Below, one piece after another: positions 33,368 through 44,211 of a stretch of DNA of 64,000 nucleotides. A model generated the notes under the pieces. It had not been told where the DNA came from, ran no database searches, and was given only the letters and a program-made list of their open reading frames with translations. The DNA is from Elusimicrobium minutum Pei191. GTDB taxonomy: Bacteria > Elusimicrobiota > Elusimicrobia > Elusimicrobiales > Elusimicrobiaceae. A program made the translations under genes and the position numbers. The stretch is from contig NC_010644.1 in the NCBI RefSeq assembly GCF_000020145.1, forward strand, positions 930,001 to 994,000, in the 5' to 3' direction. Every line of letters starts with the position of its first letter. Positions within the stretch are counted from its first letter, which is position 1.

Positions 33368-33583
33368 ATGAAAAAAGAACAAGATATAAAACGCCTCACA
33401 CGTATAGTGAAACTACTCAACATTTTATCTTCAGGGAAGCTGGTTGTTGCCGAAGTTGCTATGGAATTGAATGTGTCCGTTCGCACAATCCAAAGAGATA
33501 TTAGAACCATAGAAGACGCAGGCTTTCCCATATATGATGAGAAGCCGGGGCAAATAGCGCATAGGCGGAAGTATTTTTGGTAA
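33368..33583 (+). pseudogene. Truncated HTH regulator (WYL/DeoR-type N-terminus)
   Basis: Only the DNA-binding part is left: LLNILSSGKLVVAEVAMELNVSVRTIQRDIRTIEDAGFPIY (residues 16-56) is a complete winged-helix typical of WYL-domain regulators, which normally continue for 200 or more residues. After DEKPG the reading leaves the family pattern and stops 10 codons later. The break coincides with the truncation of the convergent gene on the other strand, marking a deletion junction near 33543-33552. The fragment might still bind DNA. Confidence 0.7.
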
Positions 33584-34007
33584 CTGTTTTTGCGCCTGTC
33601 AATTTAGCCAAATTTTCTGCCCCTGTATCAAATTTGCTTTTACTTGAAGACACGGCTTTTGCTTCTGGCCCCAAAACATCTTTTATCCCTTTTGCTTTTC
33701 TGTCCTCTAAAACACCAATAAAAGTATTAATAGCGTTTAAACTTCTGGGAAATCCGCTGTAAGCGTACATTTGTATCAGAACTTCTTTGATTTCATTAAT
33801 TGTAAGTTTATTATCCAACCCTTCATGTAGCGCTTTGTTAAGTTTATCTAGATCCCCGACGGCTGTTAAAGCTGCTATTTTAGCTATACTTTGCTGTCTT
33901 GGCGTTAATGCTTGCAGTTCAACTGATTGTGCTATGTAAGAAAATGAGAGTACGGAAATAAGTACGGCCATTATTAGTGTAAGATTTTTTAATTTTATAT
34001 TTTCCAT
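33501..34007 (-). pseudogene. Truncated exported carboxymuconolactone decarboxylase-family protein
   Basis: 168 residues with a signal peptide (ending near IAQSVELQ) and one CMD module: LTPRQQSIAKIAALTAVGDLDKL and LTINEIKEVLIQMYAYSGFPRSLNAI. Family members of this exported type continue after FAPA with a second CMD module. Here the sequence changes to 13 unrelated residues read from the opposite strand of the neighbouring HTH gene. So the C-terminal half is lost at the junction near 33543-33552. SD GGAGG before the ATG is intact, so a shortened product may be made. Cotranscribed with the hydrolase upstream. Confidence 0.75.
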
Positions 34008-34022
34008 TTTGACCTCCGGCCT

Positions 34023-34050
34023 AAGGCGGCCATATATAATGGGCCGCCTT
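34023..34050. other. Perfect hairpin between hydrolase and CMD genes
   Basis: Arms AAGGCGGCC / GGCCGCCTT with a 10-base loop and no T-run in the minus-strand direction. It could be a weak terminator or an RNA-stability element within the operon. Confidence 0.55.
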
Positions 34051-34061
34051 AAACCTTATTT

Positions 34062-35108
34062 TTACTTAAGATTTTGCTTAAAGAAACTATCCAGTTTCGG
34101 GATAGTTAATTTCATATATTCCGGCCTGTCGTAAAGGTCCACGTGCGACGCGCCGGGCACTACATATAGCTCCTTAGGCTGAGCTGCCTTGCTGTAAGCA
34201 TCTTCGCTAAAGTAGGCAGATACGGCCCGCTCTCCAACAATAAATAGCAACGGGCGGGGTGAGATTGTTTCTATCTGTATAAACGGGAAGAAGTTCATCA
34301 TTGCCGCTTGGCTTACTAAAGAGTATGCGGTATCCGTATTTGGGTGTTGCGCACGGGGCGTGCGGTAATAGTCATAAAACTCACGGGTGTTTTCTGTATC
34401 TTTATCAGTAATACTGGCAGGAACGCCAAGAGTATCGGTACGTTTTTCCCCTCTAAATTCCTTTGTGCGTAAATCGCCTATAAGGTCAAGCGTTTTCATG
34501 CGTTGTTCGTAGGAGATAGCGTCGCCAAGGCCCTGCCTGCGTGCGCGGCCCAAGTCATACATGCTTACTGTAGCAACAGCTTTAACTCTATGGTCAATAG
34601 CCGCCGCACTTACCACATATCCGCCGCCTCCGCAAATACCCAAAAGACCGATGCGTCCTGCATCAACTAAAGATTGGGTGCTTAAAAAATCTACCGCCGC
34701 AATAAAGTCCTCTATGCGGATATCAGGTATTTCTATATTGCGCGGCTGCCCGCCGCTTTCACCCCAAAATGAAGCGTCAAAAGCAAGAGTAACAAAGCCC
34801 ATTTCCGCCAATTTTTGTGCATGCAGGCCTGACGTTTGCTCCTTAACACCGGTAAAAGTATGGCCAACAACAATTGCGGGATGTTTTTTATTTTTATCAA
34901 TATTTTTTGGCATATACATATGTCCCGCTATTTCTATGCCAATTCTGTTTTTAAATATAACTTTTTCCATTCGCACACTATCGCTCTGCCGGAATGTAAG
35001 ATGAGCCGCCGTTGTTGTCCCCTTACATATTTTATATACACCCCATACTATAGAACTTGTTAAAACCGCCGCCGCTACTACTATTAGTATTAGTTTAAGA
35101 TTCATCAT
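34062..35108 (-). CDS. Membrane-anchored alpha/beta hydrolase (dienelactone hydrolase-like)
   Basis: 348 residues: an N-terminal membrane helix (residues 4-23), then an alpha/beta hydrolase. The oxyanion region is VVGHTFTGVKEQ, the nucleophile elbow GICGGGGY near 160 has Cys where most have Ser, and the acid and His lie near the end (GASHVDLYDRPEY). Cys-elbow members of this family exist among dienelactone hydrolase relatives. SD AGGAGG lies before tandem ATGs. It leads a two-gene unit with the truncated CMD gene and diverges from an AraC regulator that probably controls it. Confidence 0.82.
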   Translation of the reverse strand: MMNLKLILIVVAAAVLTSSIVWGVYKICKGTTTAAHLTFRQSDSVRMEKVIFKNRIGIEIAGHMYMPKNIDKNKKHPAIVVGHTFTGVKEQTSGLHAQKLAEMGFVTLAFDASFWGESGGQPRNIEIPDIRIEDFIAAVDFLSTQSLVDAGRIGLLGICGGGGYVVSAAAIDHRVKAVATVSMYDLGRARRQGLGDAISYEQRMKTLDLIGDLRTKEFRGEKRTDTLGVPASITDKDTENTREFYDYYRTPRAQHPNTDTAYSLVSQAAMMNFFPFIQIETISPRPLLFIVGERAVSAYFSEDAYSKAAQPKELYVVPGASHVDLYDRPEYMKLTIPKLDSFFKQNLK

Positions 35109-35254
35109 ATCCTCCTGTAGGTTTAATCTTGTAGCTATAGTATATTTCTTTGAGATAGGAGTTTAAAGATATAAAAAAGCCTAATTATTGCCTAATTCTC
35201 TCACCGCCAAAAAAATAAGTTATTACATATGATAGAATCAATACAGAGGTTTAT

Positions 35255-36151
35255 ATGAACAAAAACTTATCTGAACTAAACAAACAACTGCAAGAAAAAG
35301 TGCTTAATTTAGTCCCGAAACCGGGCAGCTTTGCCACTGATATAAAAGGTCTTAGAATATTTAGAAGAAACCAGCCCGAAGAGGCAAGAAAATGTTTTTA
35401 TAAGCCTATCATTGCTTTAATGCTGCAAGGCAGCAAACAATGTGTTTTCAACGCTGAGAAAATAGAATATGTAGCAAACGAATGTCTGGTAACAAGTATT
35501 GATATACCAAGCGCAAGCAGAATTACGGACGCCTCCCCCGAAAAGCCGTGTATAGGAGTTACACTGGGAATAGACAGCTTTATAATAAAACAGCTTATCA
35601 TTGAAACCAATCTTTTAAAAACAGATTATCCCGCCCAAAGAGCAGTTGGCGTAACAAAGGCTAACAGCGAAATACTGGACGCGTTTTTACGTATTGTAAC
35701 GCTTTTAGAGCAGCCCAAAGAACAGCAAAATATTTTAGCTCCCATGATTATACGCGAAATTTACTACCGCCTGCTTATGACGCCTGTAGGCGAGCAGCTT
35801 AGAATGGTAAATACTGTCGGCACAAAAAGCAACCAAATTGCCACGGCAATAGAATGGCTTAAAGAAAACTTTAAAGAAGAATTGAATGTTGAGAAACTTG
35901 CCGCAAAGGTAAATATGTCCCCTTCCTCTTTTTACCGTAATTTTAGAAAGGTAACAGATGTAAGCCCTTTGCAATACCAAAAACAATTACGCTTATATGA
36001 AGCGCAGCGTTTGATGGTGTCTGATAATTTGGATGCTGCTAACGCCGGATACGCCGTAGGATATGAAAGCCCCACACAATTTAACAGAGAATATAAACGA
36101 ATGTTCGGCAACCCGCCGAAAACAGATATAAAAATACTACAAACTCTTTAG
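35255..36151 (+). CDS. AraC-family transcriptional regulator
   Basis: 298 residues: an N-terminal AraC_N effector domain (ARKCFYKPIIALMLQGSKQ near 45, with CLVTSIDIPS) and a C-terminal double HTH (LNVEKLAAKVNMSPSSFYRNFRKV near 210 and AGYAVGYESPTQFNREYKRMFG near 268). SD-like AGAGG precedes the ATG. Divergently placed from the exported hydrolase and CMD genes, so it likely activates them in response to a small molecule. Confidence 0.9.
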   Translation: MNKNLSELNKQLQEKVLNLVPKPGSFATDIKGLRIFRRNQPEEARKCFYKPIIALMLQGSKQCVFNAEKIEYVANECLVTSIDIPSASRITDASPEKPCIGVTLGIDSFIIKQLIIETNLLKTDYPAQRAVGVTKANSEILDAFLRIVTLLEQPKEQQNILAPMIIREIYYRLLMTPVGEQLRMVNTVGTKSNQIATAIEWLKENFKEELNVEKLAAKVNMSPSSFYRNFRKVTDVSPLQYQKQLRLYEAQRLMVSDNLDAANAGYAVGYESPTQFNREYKRMFGNPPKTDIKILQTL

Positions 36152-36684: not shown

Positions 36685-37110
36685 TTAAGAAGCGGCTAGA
36701 GTTTTACCGTATTCCTCACATTTTGTCATGCCGTAGGCGTCGGGCATAAGATTAATTGTAAGGCCTTCAGCCACAAGGTTGGCGCCTGCAGCTTTAACCC
36801 TCTCTTCCCAATCGCGCATCCATTGGCCCGTACCCCAGTCATAAGAGCCGAACAACGCAACCTTTTTGCCGGAAATATTACCCTCTAAAGAAGACATAAA
36901 AGGTTCCATTTCGCTTTCTTCCAAAACTTCGGCACCCATTGAGGGACATCCCAAAACTATAATATCACTGTTAATAAATTCTGGGTTAACGCCCCCTACC
37001 GGGTAAACTTTTACATCAGCGCCGGCCTGTCTGGCGCCGTCGGCTATGGCATTGGCCATCATTTCCGTATTTCCCGTACCGCTCCAGTACACAACAGATA
37101 TCTTGCTCAT
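36685..37110 (-). CDS. Flavodoxin
   Basis: A 141-residue FMN electron carrier. The phosphate loop is WSGTGNTEMMANAIADG at residues 9-25, and the isoalloxazine region shows GCPSMGAEVLEE near 54 and FGSYDWGTGQWM near 87. SD AGGAGG precedes the ATG. Flavodoxins often replace ferredoxin in iron limitation. It shares a divergent promoter region containing a perfect palindrome (37151-37176) with the metallophore-like operon, which suggests joint metal-responsive control. Confidence 0.93.
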   Translation of the reverse strand: MSKISVVYWSGTGNTEMMANAIADGARQAGADVKVYPVGGVNPEFINSDIIVLGCPSMGAEVLEESEMEPFMSSLEGNISGKKVALFGSYDWGTGQWMRDWEERVKAAGANLVAEGLTINLMPDAYGMTKCEEYGKTLAAS

Positions 37111-37150
37111 AAAAAATATCCTCCTATTGCAAATTTACTTTTTTAGATAT

Positions 37151-37176
37151 ATAATGTTAGCTGTAACTAACATTAT
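37151..37176. promoter_or_regulatory. Perfect palindromic operator
   Basis: Arms ATAATGTTAG / CTAACATTAT (10 of 10) around CTGTAA, in the gap between flavodoxin and the ABC transporter operon. TTAG/CTAA half-sites are reminiscent of DtxR/MntR-type sites (inference). It can serve both divergent promoters. Confidence 0.75.
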
Positions 37177-37211
37177 TAATCATACCTAAATTATTGGAAG
37201 ATTGCAAATAT

Positions 37212-38990
37212 ATGAAAAAAGAAACAAAAAAACGCGGGCTGACCCGTCTTATAGAAATAGCGGGCACCAAAAAATGGTGGCTGTTAGGATCAATGACGCT
37301 GGCGGTATTAGCATCTATCGCCCAGTTTGTGCCTTATCTGGCAATATTTAACATAGTAAAAGAATTAGGCCTTAATATTAACACGCCGGAACTGATAAAC
37401 AAGGCCGATATTTGGTTTTGGGGAAAAGTAAGCCTTTGGGCAATAGTCGCTTTCGGGGTACTTACTTTTACCTCGTTAATATTATCACACATAGCGGCCT
37501 TTAATATTCTTTATGAACTGCGCATGATGATAAGCAAAAAAATGCCTAAACTGCCTTTAGGTTTTTTTACGGTAAGTTCGTCAGGCCAGTTAAAAAAAGT
37601 AATGTCCGAAGACGTGGAAAGAATAGAACTTTTTGTGGCGCATAATATACCGGATTTAACAACAGCGTTTGTTTTTCCCCTTCTTGTTATAGGTTATCTT
37701 TTTACTATCGACTGGCGTCTTGCCTTAGTACTTTTAGCGGTAATAATAATAGCGGTGGCGTTTCAAAGTTCAATGTATTTAAATAAAAATGCCATTGCAA
37801 GCCAATATAAATACCATGAAATTTTGGGCAAATTAAACGCAAGCATAATAGAATATGTACGCGGCATGCAGGTAATAAAGATATTTAACCGCTCGGCGGG
37901 TGCTTTTAAAAAATTAAAAGAAAATATTCTGCGTTATCGTGATTACGTTATAAAAGTAACTGAATTTTACGCTTTGCCATATTTGGGGTTTTATAACACT
38001 CTTTCCGCAGTGCTTTTAATACTTATTCCGGCATCTATATTATTTTTAATTAAGGCGCCTTCTTACACAGGCTATCTGCCCACGGTTTTAATGTTTTTAC
38101 TTTTAGGCGGCGGTATATTCTTCCCCTTTTTAAAACTTATGTGGATGACAAACCTTCTTATGCAAAACAGTATGGGTATAGGCTTAATTGACAATATTTT
38201 AAAACAAGAAGAAATAAAAGAAACCGAAAATCCTAAAATGCCAAAAGACTCTTCCATTGAGTTTAAAGACGTTTCTTTCGCCTATAAAAATAATGAAGTG
38301 TTAAAAAATATTACCTTTATCGCCGCTCCCGGCACTCTTACAGCGCTTGTGGGACCGTCTGGCGCGGGTAAATCAACAATAGCCATGCTTACCGCCCGTT
38401 TTTGGGATATAAAAAAAGGTGAAATCAAAATAGGCGGCGTTAATATAAAAGATATTCCTTTTTCAAAACTTATGGATAATATTTCCTTCGTATTTCAAGA
38501 CAATATGCTGTTTTTTGACACTATTGAGGAAAATATACGCATGGGTAATAAAACCGCTTCTAAAGAAGACGTGGTTAACGCGGCAAAAGCAGCGCATTGT
38601 CATGAATTTATTGTTAATTTAGATAAAGGTTATGACACGCTTGTAGGAGAGGGCGGCACATATCTTTCCGGCGGGGAAGCACAGCGCGTGGCGCTTGCCA
38701 GAGTTATATTAAAAAACTCTCCCATACTTCTTTTAGACGAGGCCACCGCATACGCCGATCCTGAAAATGAGGGTAAAATATTAAAATCATTTTCCTCTCT
38801 TATAAAGGAGAAAACCGTTATAGTTATAGCGCACCGTCTTTCCACTATAACCGGGGCAGACCAAATACTTGTTGTTGACGGCGGCAAAATAAAAGAACAA
38901 GGCACACATGAGGAATTGCTTTTGGCGGGAGGCTTATATAAAAACATGTGGGAAACATACAGCCAAACGCGCGATTGGAGGATAAAATGA
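37212..38990 (+). CDS. ABC half-transporter, YbtP/IrtA-like
   Basis: 592 residues from the ATG at 37212. Six membrane segments (about 20-310) precede an ATPase with Walker A GPSGAGKST near 390, signature YLSGGEAQRVA near 490 and Walker B ILLLDEATAYADPENE. The ATAYADPENE stretch, where most exporters have TSALD, is what I associate with the YbtPQ/IrtAB group that imports metal-loaded siderophores despite an exporter fold. The second half-transporter overlaps it, so the two likely form a heterodimer. First gene of the metal-type operon. Confidence 0.88.
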   Translation: MKKETKKRGLTRLIEIAGTKKWWLLGSMTLAVLASIAQFVPYLAIFNIVKELGLNINTPELINKADIWFWGKVSLWAIVAFGVLTFTSLILSHIAAFNILYELRMMISKKMPKLPLGFFTVSSSGQLKKVMSEDVERIELFVAHNIPDLTTAFVFPLLVIGYLFTIDWRLALVLLAVIIIAVAFQSSMYLNKNAIASQYKYHEILGKLNASIIEYVRGMQVIKIFNRSAGAFKKLKENILRYRDYVIKVTEFYALPYLGFYNTLSAVLLILIPASILFLIKAPSYTGYLPTVLMFLLLGGGIFFPFLKLMWMTNLLMQNSMGIGLIDNILKQEEIKETENPKMPKDSSIEFKDVSFAYKNNEVLKNITFIAAPGTLTALVGPSGAGKSTIAMLTARFWDIKKGEIKIGGVNIKDIPFSKLMDNISFVFQDNMLFFDTIEENIRMGNKTASKEDVVNAAKAAHCHEFIVNLDKGYDTLVGEGGTYLSGGEAQRVALARVILKNSPILLLDEATAYADPENEGKILKSFSSLIKEKTVIVIAHRLSTITGADQILVVDGGKIKEQGTHEELLLAGGLYKNMWETYSQTRDWRIK

Positions 38991-40726
38991 TTAAAATTTT
39001 AAACGCCGCCACACAAGGGCAGGCAAAAAAAATGTTACCCATGCTGGGGTGGACAGTATTGGAATACGCTTTAAGAGGCGCGCCTTACGCCGTTTTACTT
39101 TTTGTAGTTTACGAACTTTTCAAACCGCTTGAAACGCCCGGCGCAATTCTTAACACGGCAGCTATAATGAAAGCATGTATTATCCTTTTTATTATAATCG
39201 TACTTTTATGCATTGTTAACACAAAGTCTTTCTTTAGCGCGTATAAAGACGGTTACACAATTTGCGCGGGCGTGCGCCTTAAAATGGCCGACCACTTAAG
39301 AAGACTGTCCATGGGTTTTTACAACGCAAAAGACCCCGGCGATATAGGTGCATACCTTGTTAACGATTACGCCAACATAGAACAGCTTGTAACGCATCTT
39401 GTGCCGCAGGTTGTAGGCGGAGTGACAATGCCTTTAGTATTGCTTATAAGTTTGGCGTTTTTTAATTTAAAACTTGCGCTGGCCGCGGGCGGCGTAATTT
39501 TGCTTGCCTTGCCCGCTTTGCTGATATCTATAAAAATATGCAGATTCGCGGGCAAAATTCACCAGCAGACAAAAACTTCCGCAGATTCACGCATGATTGA
39601 GTATATACAAGGCATAAAATTTATTAAAGCCTTTAATTTAGGCGGTGATAAATTTGAAAGGCTTGAAAACGCTTTCAGAAAATTAAAAATAGACAGCATA
39701 CGTTTAGAAGGTGGCAGCGGCCCCACTATTATATTAAGCTCGCTTGTATTAAATACGGGTATAGTTATTATAATGCTTTACGGTTTTAAGCTGTTTACAG
39801 CGGGCCAGCTGGAACTTTCTGTTTATCTGATGTTTTTAATTTTAGGCAGCCGTATATACGAACCGCTTTTGCAGTCCCTTATTTTTATAGGATTGATTAC
39901 ATATATGAACCTTGGCGTTGAAAGAATGGAAACACTCAGGAAAACACCCCCTATAAAGGAAGGTAAAAACAATGAAAAAATTAAAAACTTTGATATTGAG
40001 TTTGAGGATATAACGTTTTCTTACCATAACAAGCAGGTAATTAAAAACCTAAGCGCTAAAATAAACTCACACGCTTTAACCGCTTTTGTGGGGCCTTCCG
40101 GCTCGGGCAAAACAACTCTTACGCGCCTTATAGCCCGCTTTTGGGACGTTGACAGCGGCGCGGTTAAATTAAACGGCGTTAATATAAAAGATTACAAACT
40201 TGATAATCTGCTTTCTTGTATATCCATGATATTTCAAGACGTGTATTTGTTTAAAGACACAATATACAACAATATAAAAATAGGTAAAGAGGACGCTACT
40301 GAAGAAGAAATATTTGAAGCCGCCAAAAAAGCGCGCTGCCATGATTTTATAATGGCGCTTCCTAACCAGTATAACACCTTGGTTGGGGAGGCCGGCTCCA
40401 CTCTATCCGGAGGGGAAAGACAGCGTATTTCCATAGCTAGAGCAATACTTAAAGACGCCCCTATAATTTTAATTGATGAAGCCACCGCTTTCCTTGACCC
40501 GGAAAACGAGCTTCATATACAACAGGCTATAAACGATTTGGTAAAGGATAAAACCGTTATCGTCATAGCCCACAGGCTAAATACCATAAGAGAGGCGGAC
40601 AATATTATTGTTATTAACAACGGTAAAGTTGAGCAGCAGGGCCGGCACGACGATCTTCTTTCCCAAGGCGGAATTTACAAAAACTTGTGGGACGAACAGC
40701 AGCTTATAAAAAATTGGAAGTTTTAA
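38987..40726 (+). CDS. ABC half-transporter, YbtQ/IrtB-like
   Basis: 579 residues. The ATG at 38987 has SD GGAGG and overlaps the previous stop (ATGA), so the half-transporters are made together. Six membrane segments lie in residues 15-300. Walker A is GPSGSGKTT near 380, signature TLSGGERQRIS near 478, Walker B IILIDEATAFLDPENE near 500. Same DPENE feature as its partner. Together they probably carry a metal chelate across the inner membrane; direction cannot be proved from sequence. Confidence 0.88.
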   Translation: MIKILNAATQGQAKKMLPMLGWTVLEYALRGAPYAVLLFVVYELFKPLETPGAILNTAAIMKACIILFIIIVLLCIVNTKSFFSAYKDGYTICAGVRLKMADHLRRLSMGFYNAKDPGDIGAYLVNDYANIEQLVTHLVPQVVGGVTMPLVLLISLAFFNLKLALAAGGVILLALPALLISIKICRFAGKIHQQTKTSADSRMIEYIQGIKFIKAFNLGGDKFERLENAFRKLKIDSIRLEGGSGPTIILSSLVLNTGIVIIMLYGFKLFTAGQLELSVYLMFLILGSRIYEPLLQSLIFIGLITYMNLGVERMETLRKTPPIKEGKNNEKIKNFDIEFEDITFSYHNKQVIKNLSAKINSHALTAFVGPSGSGKTTLTRLIARFWDVDSGAVKLNGVNIKDYKLDNLLSCISMIFQDVYLFKDTIYNNIKIGKEDATEEEIFEAAKKARCHDFIMALPNQYNTLVGEAGSTLSGGERQRISIARAILKDAPIILIDEATAFLDPENELHIQQAINDLVKDKTVIVIAHRLNTIREADNIIVINNGKVEQQGRHDDLLSQGGIYKNLWDEQQLIKNWKF

Positions 40727-40744
40727 AAGGATAAGTTTAAAAAT

Positions 40745-41836
40745 ATGAAAATAGCGGTACTTGGCAGCGGCCACGGCGGCGTGGCAATGAGCGCGGATTT
40801 AGCTTTGTCCGGTTATGACGTAAGTCTCGCGGCGGTTGAAGAGCATTCCGTAAATATAAAACTTTTGCGTTCTTTAGACGGAATTAAAATAGAGGGCTTT
40901 ACTTCAAGCGGTAAAACGCCGCAGTTCACAAAACCAAAAGTAATTACGGAGGATGTGCCCTTTGTTTTAAAAGACGCGGACATTATTATGGTAATAGTGC
41001 CGTCTTTCGCGCAAAGCGTTTATACGGACTTAATAATAAAACATGGTAAAATTAACGCTTTAGTCTTGTTTCCCTGCGGGGGCTTTTCCGCCTTGGAGTT
41101 TAGAAACAAATTAAAAATTTTAAACAGGGAAAATGATTTTATAGCGTGTGAAACATCTTCCTTTATTTACACAACAAAAATTACCGGGCCAGGTAAAGTG
41201 TTAATTAAAGGAATAAAGGATAATGTGTATTTTGCGGCCGCGCCTTCGGAAAGGACTGGCGAAGCACTTTCCGTTATAAATCAAATTTACCCGCAGTTTA
41301 AAAAAGTTCACAACGTTTGGCAAACAAGCTTTAGTAATCCAAGCGCTGTGCTTCACACAATACCAACGCTTTTAAATATGAGCCGCATAGAACAAATGGG
41401 GCCGTACCGGTATTCCCATTATGACATTACCCCCTGCATAGGCAAGATAATGGAAGCGGTTGATCGTGAACGCGTTGAGATAGCAAAACATTTATTTCCC
41501 AATCCTCCCTCATTTTTAGAAACCATGTGTAAAATCTATAATTTACAAGCTGAGAATATTTACCAGGCGGTTAAAAGCGTAAACGCTTATAATATACAAT
41601 TTTCTCCCGATGGAATGAAACACCGCTACGTTACGGAAGATATCCCCTACAGTCTTGTTCCGATAGCAACAATAGGCAAAGAACTCGGCATAGACACACA
41701 TAATATGGACGCTGTTATAAATATAGCCTGTATGGCCAATGGGGAAAATTACTGGCTTACCGGCCGCAACGCTCAAAAAATAGGTTTTGAAGCAAAACCT
41801 AAAATAAAAACAGAAAATTTGGTGTTAGCTTTATGA
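40745..41836 (+). CDS. Opine dehydrogenase (octopine/nopaline dehydrogenase family)
   Basis: 363 residues. The Rossmann part has VLGSGHGGVAMSADLALSGYDV at the N-terminus and the C-terminal helical ODH part has LHTIPTLLNMSRIEQMG near 205 (catalytic His), then YDITPCIGKIMEAVDRERVEIAKHL. These enzymes reductively join an amino group to a keto acid. CntM-type members finish staphylopine and pseudopaline metallophores. Placed between an ABC pair and an MFS exporter, a metallophore role is the best guess. No nicotianamine-like synthase or racemase is in the operon. Confidence 0.87.
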   Translation: MKIAVLGSGHGGVAMSADLALSGYDVSLAAVEEHSVNIKLLRSLDGIKIEGFTSSGKTPQFTKPKVITEDVPFVLKDADIIMVIVPSFAQSVYTDLIIKHGKINALVLFPCGGFSALEFRNKLKILNRENDFIACETSSFIYTTKITGPGKVLIKGIKDNVYFAAAPSERTGEALSVINQIYPQFKKVHNVWQTSFSNPSAVLHTIPTLLNMSRIEQMGPYRYSHYDITPCIGKIMEAVDRERVEIAKHLFPNPPSFLETMCKIYNLQAENIYQAVKSVNAYNIQFSPDGMKHRYVTEDIPYSLVPIATIGKELGIDTHNMDAVINIACMANGENYWLTGRNAQKIGFEAKPKIKTENLVLAL

Positions 41837-43221
41837 GCGCGGCAAAATTTTTAAGTAAAAATAAACTTTTAATTTTAGCCATATCGGTAGCTTCTTTTAT
41901 GGTTAATTTAGACACGTATATTATAAACGTGTCGCTCCCTTCGATAGCGGGCGGGTTTAACGCTTCCACCGCGGATATTTCGTGGGTGGCAATGGCTTAT
42001 AACCTGACGGTTGTTTCATTACTTCTTATATTCGGCAAACTGGGCGATAAAGTAGGTTTGAAATTTTTATTTATAACAGGCTTTATTATATTTACTTTAA
42101 GCTCTATACTTTGCGGCTTTGCCCCCTCGTTGCCATTTTTGGTAGCCGGCAGGCTTTTGCAAGGTATAGGCGCTTCAATACTATATGCTTTGCCGCAAGC
42201 CATGATACCCAAATACCTGCCAAAAGAAGAACGCGGCATGGCATTTGGCATACTGGCAAGCGCTGCCGCTTTAGGTATAACCCTGGGCGCGCCGCTAAGC
42301 GGCATTATAACGGGGCTTTATTCATGGAGATGGATATTTTTTATAAACCTGCCCGTAGGAATACTTGCCGTTATTGTTTTAAACTATTCAATACCTTCTA
42401 AAAACACAATAACTAAGCGCGAACCCCACTTTGACATCCCCGGCGCAGTTTTAAGTTTTTTAATGGCACTGGCATTTACTTTTTGGATAAACAGAGGCGG
42501 CATTTACGGCTGGACCGCACCTAAAATGCTTTTATGTTTAGCGTTTGCGGTAATTACGTTTGGAATATTTATAAAGAGGGAAAAAAAGGCAAAATACCCT
42601 CTTTTAGATTTAAGCCTTTTTAATAATATAACTTTTAATTTCGCCAACATAGCAATGTTTTTAGTATCGGCTTTTTTGGCGGGCACAAATTTTCTTATGC
42701 CTTTTTATCTGGCTGAAATTAAAGGCCTTTCCCCCGCGCGGACTGGAGCGGCGTTTATGGTTTATTCCGTGTCATATATGCTTACGGGGCTGGTATCTGG
42801 CAAACTGTCAGCCAAAATACCGGCCGGGAAACTTTGCGCGTGGTCAATGCTGCTGGCGTCTGTTACTTTGGCGGGGCTTGTTTATATGTTAAATACAAGC
42901 GGTATATATTACATAATTTTATACTTTACGCTAACGGGCGTGTCTTTTGCTTTCTTTATAACGTCAAATAATAATTTTGTAATGTCAATGGCGCCGGAGA
43001 ATAAAGAAGGCATGGTGTCCGGCGCGCACCGTATGGTAGGGCGCATGGGCATGCTTTGCGGCGTTGCGCTGTTTGAGGCGGTGTTTTCTTTTTACGGCTC
43101 CGAAAACCTTATAAACGGGTTTAGAGGAGCATACGCCCTTGGCGCGGCAATGTGTTTTGCCGCTATGCTTTTTTCATTAAAAAAACCAGTGTTAAAATTA
43201 AATAAAGGAGACGTAATATGA
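41833..43221 (+). CDS. MFS exporter, DHA2 (EmrB/QacA) type
   Basis: 462 residues with about 14 hydrophobic segments. Family marks: NLDTYIINVSLPSIAGGF near 25, GKLGDKVGLKFLF near 73, RLLQGIGASILYALPQAMI near 110 and the DHA2-typical WRWIFFINLPVGI near 168. Overlaps the opine dehydrogenase stop by four bases (ATGA). In staphylopine-type systems an MFS protein (CntE) exports the finished opine, and this position is equivalent. It could also be a general drug exporter. Confidence 0.88.
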   Translation: MSAAKFLSKNKLLILAISVASFMVNLDTYIINVSLPSIAGGFNASTADISWVAMAYNLTVVSLLLIFGKLGDKVGLKFLFITGFIIFTLSSILCGFAPSLPFLVAGRLLQGIGASILYALPQAMIPKYLPKEERGMAFGILASAAALGITLGAPLSGIITGLYSWRWIFFINLPVGILAVIVLNYSIPSKNTITKREPHFDIPGAVLSFLMALAFTFWINRGGIYGWTAPKMLLCLAFAVITFGIFIKREKKAKYPLLDLSLFNNITFNFANIAMFLVSAFLAGTNFLMPFYLAEIKGLSPARTGAAFMVYSVSYMLTGLVSGKLSAKIPAGKLCAWSMLLASVTLAGLVYMLNTSGIYYIILYFTLTGVSFAFFITSNNNFVMSMAPENKEGMVSGAHRMVGRMGMLCGVALFEAVFSFYGSENLINGFRGAYALGAAMCFAAMLFSLKKPVLKLNKGDVI

Positions 43222-44133
43222 AAAGAAGTTCAGTAAAAAAAATGTCCGTAATGTCAGGCCTTCTCTTGTTTTTCTTACCTTTTGCGTTAAATATTAACGC
43301 CAAAGAATACAAAAAGCCCGGTCTTTTAATTATATCCCACGGGTCAAGCAATCAGGAAGCAAATAATAAAGTTGAAACTATGGTTGAAGAGATGCGTAAA
43401 GAAAATAATGATAAAAACTATTTCCACGCAATTGAAAATGCGTTCCTGGAAGTAGGCGCGCCTACCGTAAAAACAGGGGTTGAGCGTTTACAAAAAGCGG
43501 GCTGCGACATGATTGTGGCAGTGCCCTTTTTTACAAGCCAAGACGGGCACACGCAGGAAGATATTCCCGTTGTATTGGGCCTGTCATCGGATCCGGAAAT
43601 TCTTGCCGAACTTAAAGAAGAAGGCATTGAACTTGCCAATCCAAAACTGCCAGTGGTAATAACAAAAACTCTTAATGAAACAAAACTTCTTAGAAACTTC
43701 GCTAAAAGTGAGGTTGACTCAATGTCTTTAAAAGGTAAAGAAGAAACTTTGGTTTTAGTAAGTCTTGAAAAAAATGATTATAAAGATATTGTAACACCCA
43801 AAATCGCTGAAGCTGCAAAATATGCCGCGAACGCAAAAGGCATAAAAAAACTACAAAGATACTTATTCTTGGCAGGATGAAACTTTTTGGACAAACGTAA
43901 TGCCAGCGGTAAAAGATTACTCTAAAAAAAGTAAAAAAGTTTTTGTTATTTCCATTTACACAACACGCTCCGCGCAAAGCCTGTATGACAATGCTTTAAA
44001 AGCCGCGAAAGAAAAAGGTATTAATACTGAAGAAGGTTTTGGCAAAGCGGAAATAATTTACTCACAAAATTCTTTAATAGATTATCCGCAAACGCCTAAA
44101 ATTGTTTTAGAATTCGCAAAAAAATCCTTATAA
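43218..44133 (+). pseudogene. Exported CbiX/CbiK-like chelatase, frameshifted
   Basis: Coupled to the MFS gene (ATGA overlap, SD AAAGGAG). A signal peptide (to about residue 28, NINAKEYK) precedes LLIISHGSSNQEANNKVETMVEEM, the CbiX chelatase signature, and VAVPFFTSQDGHTQEDI. The frame ends at 43880, but the C-terminal part continues in another frame (YSWQDETFW, MPAVKDYSK and onward to 44133). An A7 run at 43844-43850 is the likely site; six A would restore one 300-residue protein. Exported CbiK-type proteins bind cobalt, iron or heme in some anaerobes, which fits a metal operon. Real mutation, phase variation or sequencing error are all possible. Confidence 0.75.
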
Positions 44134-44145
44134 AAACAAAAAACT

Positions 44146-44169
44146 ACCCCCCGTTATAAAAACGGGGGG
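44146..44169 (+). terminator. Hairpin ending the metal operon
   Basis: Stem CCCCCCGTT / AACGGGGGG, with only a weak T-tract. Confidence 0.5.
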
Positions 44170-44211
44170 CTTATTACACGGGTTTTTGTTGTTACGTCCG
44201 GTATTCGGGGG

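What the first reader, a model, noticed from the sequence alone, without database searches (positions are those of the whole stretch)
36685..44133. Opine-metallophore-like operon built on a YbtPQ/IrtAB-type ABC pair, under a perfect palindrome
Flavodoxin diverges from two coupled ABC half-transporters with the DPENE feature of siderophore importers, an opine dehydrogenase, a DHA2 exporter and an exported CbiX-like chelatase. All are overlapping or within 20 bases. Known opine metallophore loci (staphylopine, pseudopaline) use an opine dehydrogenase plus MFS exporter, but with a nicotianamine-like synthase and different importers. Here the synthase is missing and the uptake pair is of the yersiniabactin type. 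This may be a new metallophore or opine-based metal shuttle, using a ready-made amino donor.
Basis: partly seen in the sequence, partly recalled or inferred. Interest (0 to 1): 0.8.

Follow-up and report, generated by a model that had tools for sequence, protein, structure and literature searches.

The report
Iron-starvation opine operon, possible metal scavenger
A gut bacterium carries a tightly packed set of genes, under what looks like an iron-sensing switch, that may make, export and re-import a very simple metal-binding molecule; it resembles known bacterial metal scavengers but is built from different parts.

Summary
The gene set is real: flavodoxin diverging from two ABC half-transporters, an opine dehydrogenase (ODH), a DHA2-type exporter and an exported CbiX-like protein, around a perfect palindrome (37151-37176). 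Two points change the picture.

(1) The palindrome is very probably an iron operator. The same arms recur in a termite-gut relative directly before ODH-MFS-CbiX. The box also lies before feoAB in this genome and in 6 of 13 relatives' loci opened; in two of these a DtxR-type repressor gene lies between. At up to 2 mismatches this genome has 10 sites against 2 for the control.

(2) The dehydrogenase is not of the staphylopine/pseudopaline (CntM) family. It is an Octopine_DH (PF02317) enzyme nearest Arthrobacter CENDH. No nicotianamine-synthase profile hit was found.

The ABC pair groups with siderophore-type pairs, apart from MsbA-type exporters (100/100). No TonB-plug domain was found in the genome. 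The pair was not found in two termite relatives that keep ODH-MFS-CbiX. The CbiX-like frame is broken here, intact in one relative.

Best reading: an iron-starvation operon for a one-step opine-type metallophore (about 0.42; iron regulation itself about 0.85). Main rival: iron-free NADH sink plus import of foreign siderophores. New variant of a known kind.

The parts
36685..37110 (-). short-chain flavodoxin, divergently transcribed from the same operator
   Evidence: PF00258 and TIGR01753 above cut-off. In G128 a flavodoxin (51% identical) lies upstream of DUF3793 and the ODH homologue on the same strand.
37127..37155 (+). promoter-like site TTGCAA-17-TATAAT for the operon; its -10 hexamer overlaps the palindrome
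   Evidence: consensus match only (32 such sites in the region against 19.8 expected)
37151..37176 (.). palindromic operator ATAATGTTAG-CTGTAA-CTAACATTAT, predicted DtxR-type iron box
37179..37207 (-). promoter-like site TTGCAA-17-TATGAT for flavodoxin, next to the palindrome
   Evidence: consensus match only
37212..38990 (+). ABC half-transporter A (YbtP-like), D-loop DPENE
   Evidence: PF00664 and PF00005; best single half-transporter in PDB is 6p6i_A of YbtPQ; tree; motif. Start ATG 37212 chosen from the sequence (GGAAGA upstream); the ORF list gives TTG 37194.
38987..40726 (+). ABC half-transporter B, partner of A
   Evidence: best single half-transporters 6p6i_A and 6p6i_B; tree. Start ATG 38987 chosen from the sequence; the ORF list gives GTG 38948.
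40745..41836 (+). opine dehydrogenase, Octopine_DH family, CENDH-like
   Evidence: PF02317 E 7e-43; 1bg6 E 1e-52, no CntM-type hit at E<=1; fold search; H204 aligns with H202 of 1bg6 and is invariant in 12 of 12 rows
41833..43221 (+). DHA2-type MFS exporter
   Evidence: MFS_1; TIGR00711 228.8 bits, just under its 230.2 cut-off; 78-82% identical homologues follow ODH in L002 and L003
43218..44133 (+). exported CbiX-like class II chelatase homologue; frame broken in this sequence (frame 0 stops at 43880, remainder in another frame)
   Evidence: PF01903; intact 302-aa homologue in L002; two His of the CbiX region kept in 4 of 4 rows; two-piece match. Signal peptide read by eye.
44146..44170 (.). 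intrinsic-terminator-like hairpin after the operon
   Evidence: scored on the - strand; 12 such sites in the region against 9.8 expected

Best explanation
This is an iron-starvation operon. A DtxR-type repressor, holding Fe2+, sits on the palindrome and blocks both the flavodoxin promoter and the operon promoter (inferred). When iron is short, flavodoxin replaces ferredoxin and the operon is expressed. ODH joins a ready-made amino acid to an alpha-keto acid with NAD(P)H in one step, giving an N-carboxyalkyl amino acid, a small multidentate chelator. The DHA2-type protein exports it. No TonB-plug domain was found in the genome, so the small metal complex would return through porins. The exported CbiX-like protein handles metal or a tetrapyrrole outside the cytoplasm, and the YbtPQ-type ABC pair brings the metal complex in. 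Shown by computation: gene identities, operator conservation and its feoAB/DtxR association, ABC group, ODH family. Inferred: repression by DtxR, the product, export, metal binding, re-import.
For: Operator: identical arms with a different spacer, starting 76 bp before ODH in L002, another Elusimicrobiota genome. AAWGTTAGN6CTAACWTT at <=2 mismatches: 10 in this genome against 2 for the reversed control. Boxes precede FeoAB here (Pfam) and feoAB-like genes (by eye) in 6 of 13 relatives' loci opened: L070, L071, L073, L074, L084, L085; in L084/L166 and L085/L165 a gene with both DtxR Pfam domains lies between. The only Fur-family hit lies just upstream of a rubrerythrin-like gene (by eye), so looks PerR-like; a DtxR-type gene is present. 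ABC pair: exporters separate at 100/100 and A subunits form one group at 100/100; 6 of 8 plasmid-set relatives' loci inspected have TonB receptors or NRPS-type genes, and in G026 FTR1 and P19-type iron genes lie close by. ODH-MFS-CbiX order kept in L002 and L003. An exported CbiX relative in G120 neighbours a TonB receptor. No Plug domain in this genome.
Against: The ODH family is that of amino-acid/pyruvate opine enzymes not tied to metals. Of 30 wider ODH loci none has an MFS or CbiX-like BLAST match to this operon (E<=1e-5) or a half-transporter pair. The ABC pair is not found in the two termite MAGs that keep the rest, so it is not shown to act on the ODH product. Two of 8 plasmid-set relatives (Fusobacterium, Subdoligranulum), and G133 and G166 in the phylum, show no recognised siderophore genes beside their pairs. 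A simple opine is expected to bind ferric iron weakly (recalled chemistry). The CbiX-like frame is broken here. The box exceeds its control in only 11 of 19 relatives (equal in 2, below in 6, e.g. G181 1 vs 3, G030 6 vs 12, G080 0 vs 14). No box was found before G128's flavodoxin-DUF3793-ODH.
Confidence: 0.42

Rival explanations
1. Iron-sparing redox valve. Under iron starvation the Fe-S enzymes pyruvate:ferredoxin oxidoreductase and hydrogenase fail, so the cell reoxidises NADH with an iron-free opine dehydrogenase (pyruvate + amino acid + NADH to opine) and exports the opine as a fermentation product, as octopine dehydrogenase does in anoxic molluscs (recalled). The ABC pair separately imports foreign siderophores.
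For: ODH nearest CENDH/octopine dehydrogenase; same operator as flavodoxin; a 1-mismatch box 155 bp upstream of PFOR; ODH-MFS kept without the ABC pair in termite relatives; flavodoxin-DUF3793-ODH in G128.
Against: Does not explain the exported CbiX-like chelatase homologue kept next to ODH-MFS in L002 and L003, nor why the siderophore-type importer lies inside the same operon here.
Confidence: 0.25
2. Scavenging operon: the ABC pair imports a siderophore or tetrapyrrole-metal made by others, the CbiX-like protein removes or inserts metal outside the cytoplasm, and ODH-MFS modifies and expels a breakdown product or serves an unrelated iron-stress need.
For: YbtPQ-type pair; exported CbiX-like proteins here and beside a TonB receptor in G120; heme demetallation in the periplasm followed by FeoAB is reported for Bacteroides fragilis, and a CbiK-like IhtB was proposed for P. 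gingivalis (PMC6460266, passages seen).
Against: No TonB plug domain in the genome, so large ferric siderophores or heme have no obvious outer-membrane route; the same paper states that disrupting the B. fragilis cobalt chelatase gene did not affect heme-iron use (unpublished data).
Confidence: 0.2
3. Member of the CntL/CntM opine metallophore (zincophore) family, with its synthase elsewhere in the genome.
For: Similar parts list: opine dehydrogenase, MFS exporter, ABC importer (PMC7438024).
Against: ODH is PF02317 and matches no CntM-type structure by sequence at E<=1, 13-16% identity by fold alignment; no NAS profile hit; operator shared with feoAB, i.e. iron rather than zinc.
Confidence: 0.03
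4. Ordinary catabolic opine or amino-acid dehydrogenase operon, co-located with transporters by chance.
For: Family of the ODH.
Against: Overlapping genes, synteny of ODH-MFS-CbiX across three genomes, conserved iron-type operator, siderophore-type importer.
Confidence: 0.06

Closest known systems
Staphylopine/pseudopaline/yersinopine/bacillopaline clusters (CntL-CntM, MFS or EamA exporter)
   Same: An opine dehydrogenase next to an exporter and an importer; MFS exporters also occur there (PMC7438024, Results sections seen).
   Different: No NAS-like synthase hit; dehydrogenase of another family (PF02317, 15-16% identity to staphylopine dehydrogenase); importer is a pair of exporter-fold half-transporters rather than the peptide or FecCD types listed there; operator shared with feoAB (iron), not zinc; outside the four phyla listed there.
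YbtPQ (yersiniabactin) and IrtAB (mycobactin) importers
   Same: Two half-transporters encoded together; 6p6i_A (taken as YbtP; partner chain of 8vsi named YbtQ) is the best single half-transporter hit in PDB for both proteins; TonB or NRPS-type neighbours among most relatives inspected.
   Different: ABC-A is 43% identical at most among the 25 plasmid relatives listed and about 39% over the pieces matching YbtP/YbtQ; substrate unknown; no siderophore synthetase beside it.
Arthrobacter CENDH (1bg6) and octopine dehydrogenase
   Same: Fold and sequence family; H202 of 1bg6 aligned with H204.
   Different: 33% identity; embedded in an iron-type operon; the PCGG stretch in this and the two termite ODHs replaces PGRT of the nine other homologues aligned.
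Exported CbiK/CbiX-type chelatases (IhtB of Porphyromonas, named; CbiK-P of Desulfovibrio, recalled)
   Same: Class II chelatase homologue with an N-terminal export signal (by eye) in a metal-uptake setting.
   Different: Only the N-terminal half matches Pfam CbiX; PF06180 CbiK is not hit by the L002 protein; frame broken in this sequence.

Membership tests
Nicotianamine-like opine metallophore system (CntL/CntM) | CntM-family (staphylopine-type) dehydrogenase | tested here: not met
   Pfam gives only PF02317; no CntM-type PDB sequence at E<=1; fold search ranks 1bg6 first, staphylopine dehydrogenase 15-16% identity
Nicotianamine-like opine metallophore system (CntL/CntM) | NAS-like synthase (cntL), directly upstream of cntM in all SSN clusters but one (PMC7438024) | tested here: not met
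   The gene directly upstream is ABC-B; PF03059 absent in the whole genome, 0 of 1. The power of PF03059 for bacterial CntL was not checked: it rang in 1 of 14 controls, a methanogen.
Nicotianamine-like opine metallophore system (CntL/CntM) | exporter and importer encoded within six ORFs | tested here: met
   MFS and ABC pair in the same operon; import direction not tested
Octopine_DH (PF02317) opine dehydrogenases | Octopine_DH helical domain above cut-off and CENDH-like fold | tested here: met
   146.6 bits against cut-off 30; TMq 0.86 to 1bg6 on a model of pLDDT 85.9
Octopine_DH (PF02317) opine dehydrogenases | reductive condensation of an amino acid with an alpha-keto acid | not testable with these tools
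   needs enzyme assay
YbtPQ/IrtAB-type siderophore importers | adjacent half-transporter pair grouping apart from MsbA-type exporters | tested here: met
   100/100 split of 24 pair members from 22 exporter-type genes. YbtPQ and IrtAB sequences were not in the tree, only in PDB scores.
YbtPQ/IrtAB-type siderophore importers | import of a ferric siderophore | not testable with these tools
   needs uptake assay
TonB-dependent siderophore uptake (Gram-negative) | TonB-dependent outer-membrane receptor | tested here: not met
   PF07715 0 of 1 genome; controls ring in 3 of 14. The barrel family PF00593 was not searched.
DtxR/IdeR-type iron regulon | conserved palindrome before iron genes, with a DtxR-family gene | tested here: met
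   spacing differs from the 19-bp DtxR sites of Corynebacterium (PMC524172, passages and table pieces seen)
DtxR/IdeR-type iron regulon | metal-dependent binding of the regulator to the box | not testable with these tools
   needs EMSA or footprinting

The most novel reading that the evidence does not exclude
A synthase-free, single-enzyme opine siderophore: an iron-repressed operon in which a CENDH-type dehydrogenase makes a chelator directly from housekeeping metabolites, exported by an MFS and recaptured by a YbtPQ-type importer in a Gram-negative-type bacterium without TonB receptors. It would be an opine metallophore evolved independently of CntL/CntM and devoted to iron.
Probability: 0.33. 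Interest if true: 0.8.

Novelty: new variant of a known kind. Interest (0 to 1): 0.62.

Why it matters
If true, opine metallophores arose more than once, and a chelator can be made by one enzyme from common metabolites, so genome-mining rules that look for NRPS clusters or cntL/cntM would miss such systems. The finding also gives a candidate iron regulon (operator plus DtxR-type repressor) for Elusimicrobiota, and suggests how a small anaerobe without TonB receptors might compete for iron in the gut. Even the rival reading, an iron-sparing opine fermentation switched on with flavodoxin, would be an unusual physiological use of opine dehydrogenase in bacteria and is testable with the same cultures.

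Tried and rejected
CntM kinship: rejected on sequence and fold. Nicotianamine-synthase elsewhere: none by PF03059, with the caveat that the profile's power for bacterial CntL was not checked. Literature: searches for opine dehydrogenase with metallophore/siderophore, rhizobactin with opine, iron limitation with opine dehydrogenase, and aminopolycarboxylate metallophores showed no paper on a PF02317-type siderophore enzyme. From these I opened PMC7438024 (sections and passages) and PMC7676072 (passages on rhizobactin B: no dehydrogenase is mentioned in its main text). Elusimicrobium minutum with iron, Elusimicrobi with opine, and Elusimicrobi/siderophore/DtxR (listings only) showed no paper on this system. 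The library holds only open-licence papers and the lists are capped. Absence in print is claimed for these searches only. YbtPQ and chelatase searches (listings) led to passages of PMC10967856 and PMC6460266.

AlphaFold of the CbiX-like protein (3 sequences) was too poor to use (pLDDT 51.5), so no fold search was made with it. The MFS search against plasmids gave MFS homologues at 29-34% identity, several named as drug efflux, and no context was followed. A box upstream of the ABC pair in G026 and G166 was sought and not found; G133 has a diverged TTAG-6-CTAA palindrome starting 83 bp before its pair. At <=3 mismatches to the strict box this genome has 17 sites against 14 in the control, so the ferritin-like and 2Fe-2S-subunit sites, which need that tolerance, are weak singly. 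Tree and motif comparison: exporter-type rows were 16 of the 26 loci L020-L045 (17 tried, L022 gave no usable ORF, 9 not tried), L121-L125 (L126-L128 not used) and window 46774-48576; Fuso_A gave no D-loop match by the pattern used.


Full report
WHAT IS THERE. The window lies in a single-contig genome of 1,643,562 bases. The size fits Elusimicrobium minutum Pei191 (recalled, not tested); the two nearest ODH loci are titled Elusimicrobiota. The described genes are present with the stated order and spacing. Pfam and NCBIfam identify flavodoxin, two ABC half-transporters, an Octopine_DH-family dehydrogenase, an MFS protein just under the DHA2 cut-off and a CbiX domain. A promoter-like site on each strand abuts or overlaps the palindrome, which is the geometry of a repressor site. 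This is consensus matching only.

THE PALINDROME IS PROBABLY AN IRON BOX. In L002, a termite-gut Elusimicrobiota contig (habitat recalled from the isolate code, not from a call), ODH-MFS-CbiX are preceded by AATGTTAG-TAGTAG-CTAACATT, the same arms with a different spacer, starting 76 bp before ODH. L003 begins inside ODH, so its upstream region cannot be seen. In this genome AAWGTTAGN6CTAACWTT with up to 2 mismatches occurs 10 times against 2 for the pattern read backwards. Seven of the ten lie before genes: this operon, FeoAB, pyruvate:ferredoxin oxidoreductase, glutamate dehydrogenase (named by eye), an ATC-hydrolase-family gene (the box overlaps the called start), and two secreted-looking proteins. 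Two lie inside ORFs and one was not examined. A ferritin-like gene and a 2Fe-2S hydrogenase/NuoE-type subunit have sites only at 3 mismatches, a level not clearly above control (17 against 14). Of 20 genomes searched 17 have a match. Among the 19 relatives the count exceeds the control in 11, equals it in 2 and is below it in 6. I opened 13 of the 16 relatives' loci returned. In six the box lies before a feoAB-like gene (by eye): L070, L071, L073, L074, L084, L085. In the last two, from G104 and G055, a gene with both DtxR Pfam domains lies between box and feoAB. The other seven border unrelated or secreted-protein genes. This genome has a DtxR-type gene. Its only Fur-family hit lies just upstream of a rubrerythrin-like gene, suggesting PerR (rubrerythrin named by eye).

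THE DEHYDROGENASE. Its best PDB match is 1bg6, N-(1-D-carboxylethyl)-L-norvaline dehydrogenase (182 bits). Octopine dehydrogenase is weak and no CntM-type chain appears at E<=1. The AlphaFold model (12 sequences, pLDDT 85.9) ranks 1bg6 first (33% identity, TMq 0.86), octopine dehydrogenase next (19-20%), then staphylopine, yersinopine and pseudopaline dehydrogenases (13-16%). H204 aligns with H202 of 1bg6 and is invariant in all 12 aligned rows. Close relatives are rare: 2 of 198 phylum genomes (this one and G128), plus L002 and L003 (75%). The same-genus genome G181 lacks it at E<=1e-20. In 398 genomes of the phylum of a Thermoanaerobacterium genome, 71 have an ODH at E<=1e-60. I fetched 30 wider ODH loci, 27 from that phylum and 3 from other genomes. 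In 29 the ODH was recovered by BLAST. None has an MFS or CbiX-like match to this operon at E<=1e-5. Five (L129, L139, L143, L149, L155) have ABC ATPase-domain matches of 25-34%, none as a half-transporter pair. Of ten loci printed, seven have a neighbour that looks B12-binding by eye, confirmed by Pfam in the one tested, L135; L136 has a D-Ala-D-Ala-ligase-type neighbour. An MFS-like gene unrelated by this BLAST lies about 2 kb from the ODH in L139 (by eye).

THE ABC PAIR. The YbtPQ structure 6p6i_A is the best single half-transporter in PDB for both proteins (363 and 305 bits); full-length double transporters rank higher, matching twice. In a tree of 12 pairs and 22 exporter-type genes, exporters separate at 100/100 and the A subunits form one group at 100/100; the B subunits do not resolve as a single group. 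I inspected, by hand choice, 8 of 25 listed plasmid-set relatives (2352 records matched). Six have TonB receptors or NRPS-type genes nearby: Phocaeicola, Chroococcidiopsis, Bartonella, Neorhizobium, Anaerococcus (a condensation-domain protein only) and Rhodovulum. Two, Fusobacterium and Subdoligranulum, show none that I recognised. Of three phylum relatives with such a pair, G026 has FTR1 and P19-type iron genes close by; G133 and G166 show none that I recognised. The pair was not found in the MAGs behind L002 and L003, whose best hits are 32-34% exporter-type genes; completeness of these MAGs is not told.

THE CbiX-LIKE GENE. L002 carries an intact 302-aa homologue; L003 is open to its contig end. 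Here the frame departs from theirs at or after an A7 run (43844-43850) and the rest continues in another frame. Sequencing error, slippage or real loss cannot be told apart from one sequence. The only other phylum match (1 of the other 197 genomes, G120, 25% identity) is beside a TonB receptor and a cation-efflux-like gene (the latter named by eye).

INTERPRETATION. Three layers. (a) Iron-controlled operon: about 0.85. (b) Siderophore-type import is part of its job here: about 0.75. (c) ODH makes a secreted metallophore: about 0.42. The step from (b) to (c) rests on the ODH-MFS-CbiX unit being kept together under the box; the CbiX-like protein is what favours metal handling over a pure NADH sink. 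The missing TonB plug domain fits a small, porin-permeable chelate and argues against large siderophores.

MEMBERSHIP. It fails two defining features of the CntL/CntM family (dehydrogenase family; adjacent synthase), so it is not filed there. It may still work like an opine metallophore. Literature: Results sections of PMC7438024 and passages were seen; that survey, seeded with CntM, covers four phyla, and the word stem Elusimicrob does not occur in its main text.

Noticed in passing
window 43844-43880: CbiX-like reading frame broken at or after an A7 run; downstream homologous sequence continues in another frame to about 44133.
   Followed up: partly
L132, L135, L138, L139, L148, L151, L157 (genomes of the Thermoanaerobacterium phylum and one Actinomycetota): PF02317 dehydrogenase genes beside a B12-binding, methylaspartate-mutase-E-like gene (Pfam run on L135 only, the others by similar start of sequence; in L157 the ODH itself was not recovered): an uncharacterised recurrent pair.
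   Followed up: no
L176 (Phocaeicola massiliensis plasmid record) 3-11540: TonB receptor barrel, two saccharopine-dehydrogenase-domain proteins, methyltransferases and a YbtPQ-type ABC pair in one direction: a possible unstudied siderophore-like cluster.
   Followed up: partly
L062 10398-13237 and L063 3785-4660: An LCM-family methyltransferase lies beside the ABC pair in G026 and about 3 kb from it in G166; the G166 copy has a 2-mismatch iron box just upstream (L063 4713).
   Followed up: partly
L064 5197-5928 (genome 1156195): ATC-hydrolase-family gene carries a near-perfect copy (1 mismatch) of the operator at its called start.
   Followed up: no
L015 6908-8783 (G128): Flavodoxin, DUF3793 and ODH homologue in a row on one strand; the ODH match ends after about 254 residues near the contig end.
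   Followed up: partly
window 44212-45637: Two small outer-membrane-like proteins (239 and 200 aa, barrel-like by eye) on the minus strand next to the operon.
   Followed up: no
window 33501-36151: AraC-type regulator diverging from an alpha/beta hydrolase and a carboxymuconolactone-decarboxylase-family gene, just upstream of the flavodoxin (Pfam).
   Followed up: no
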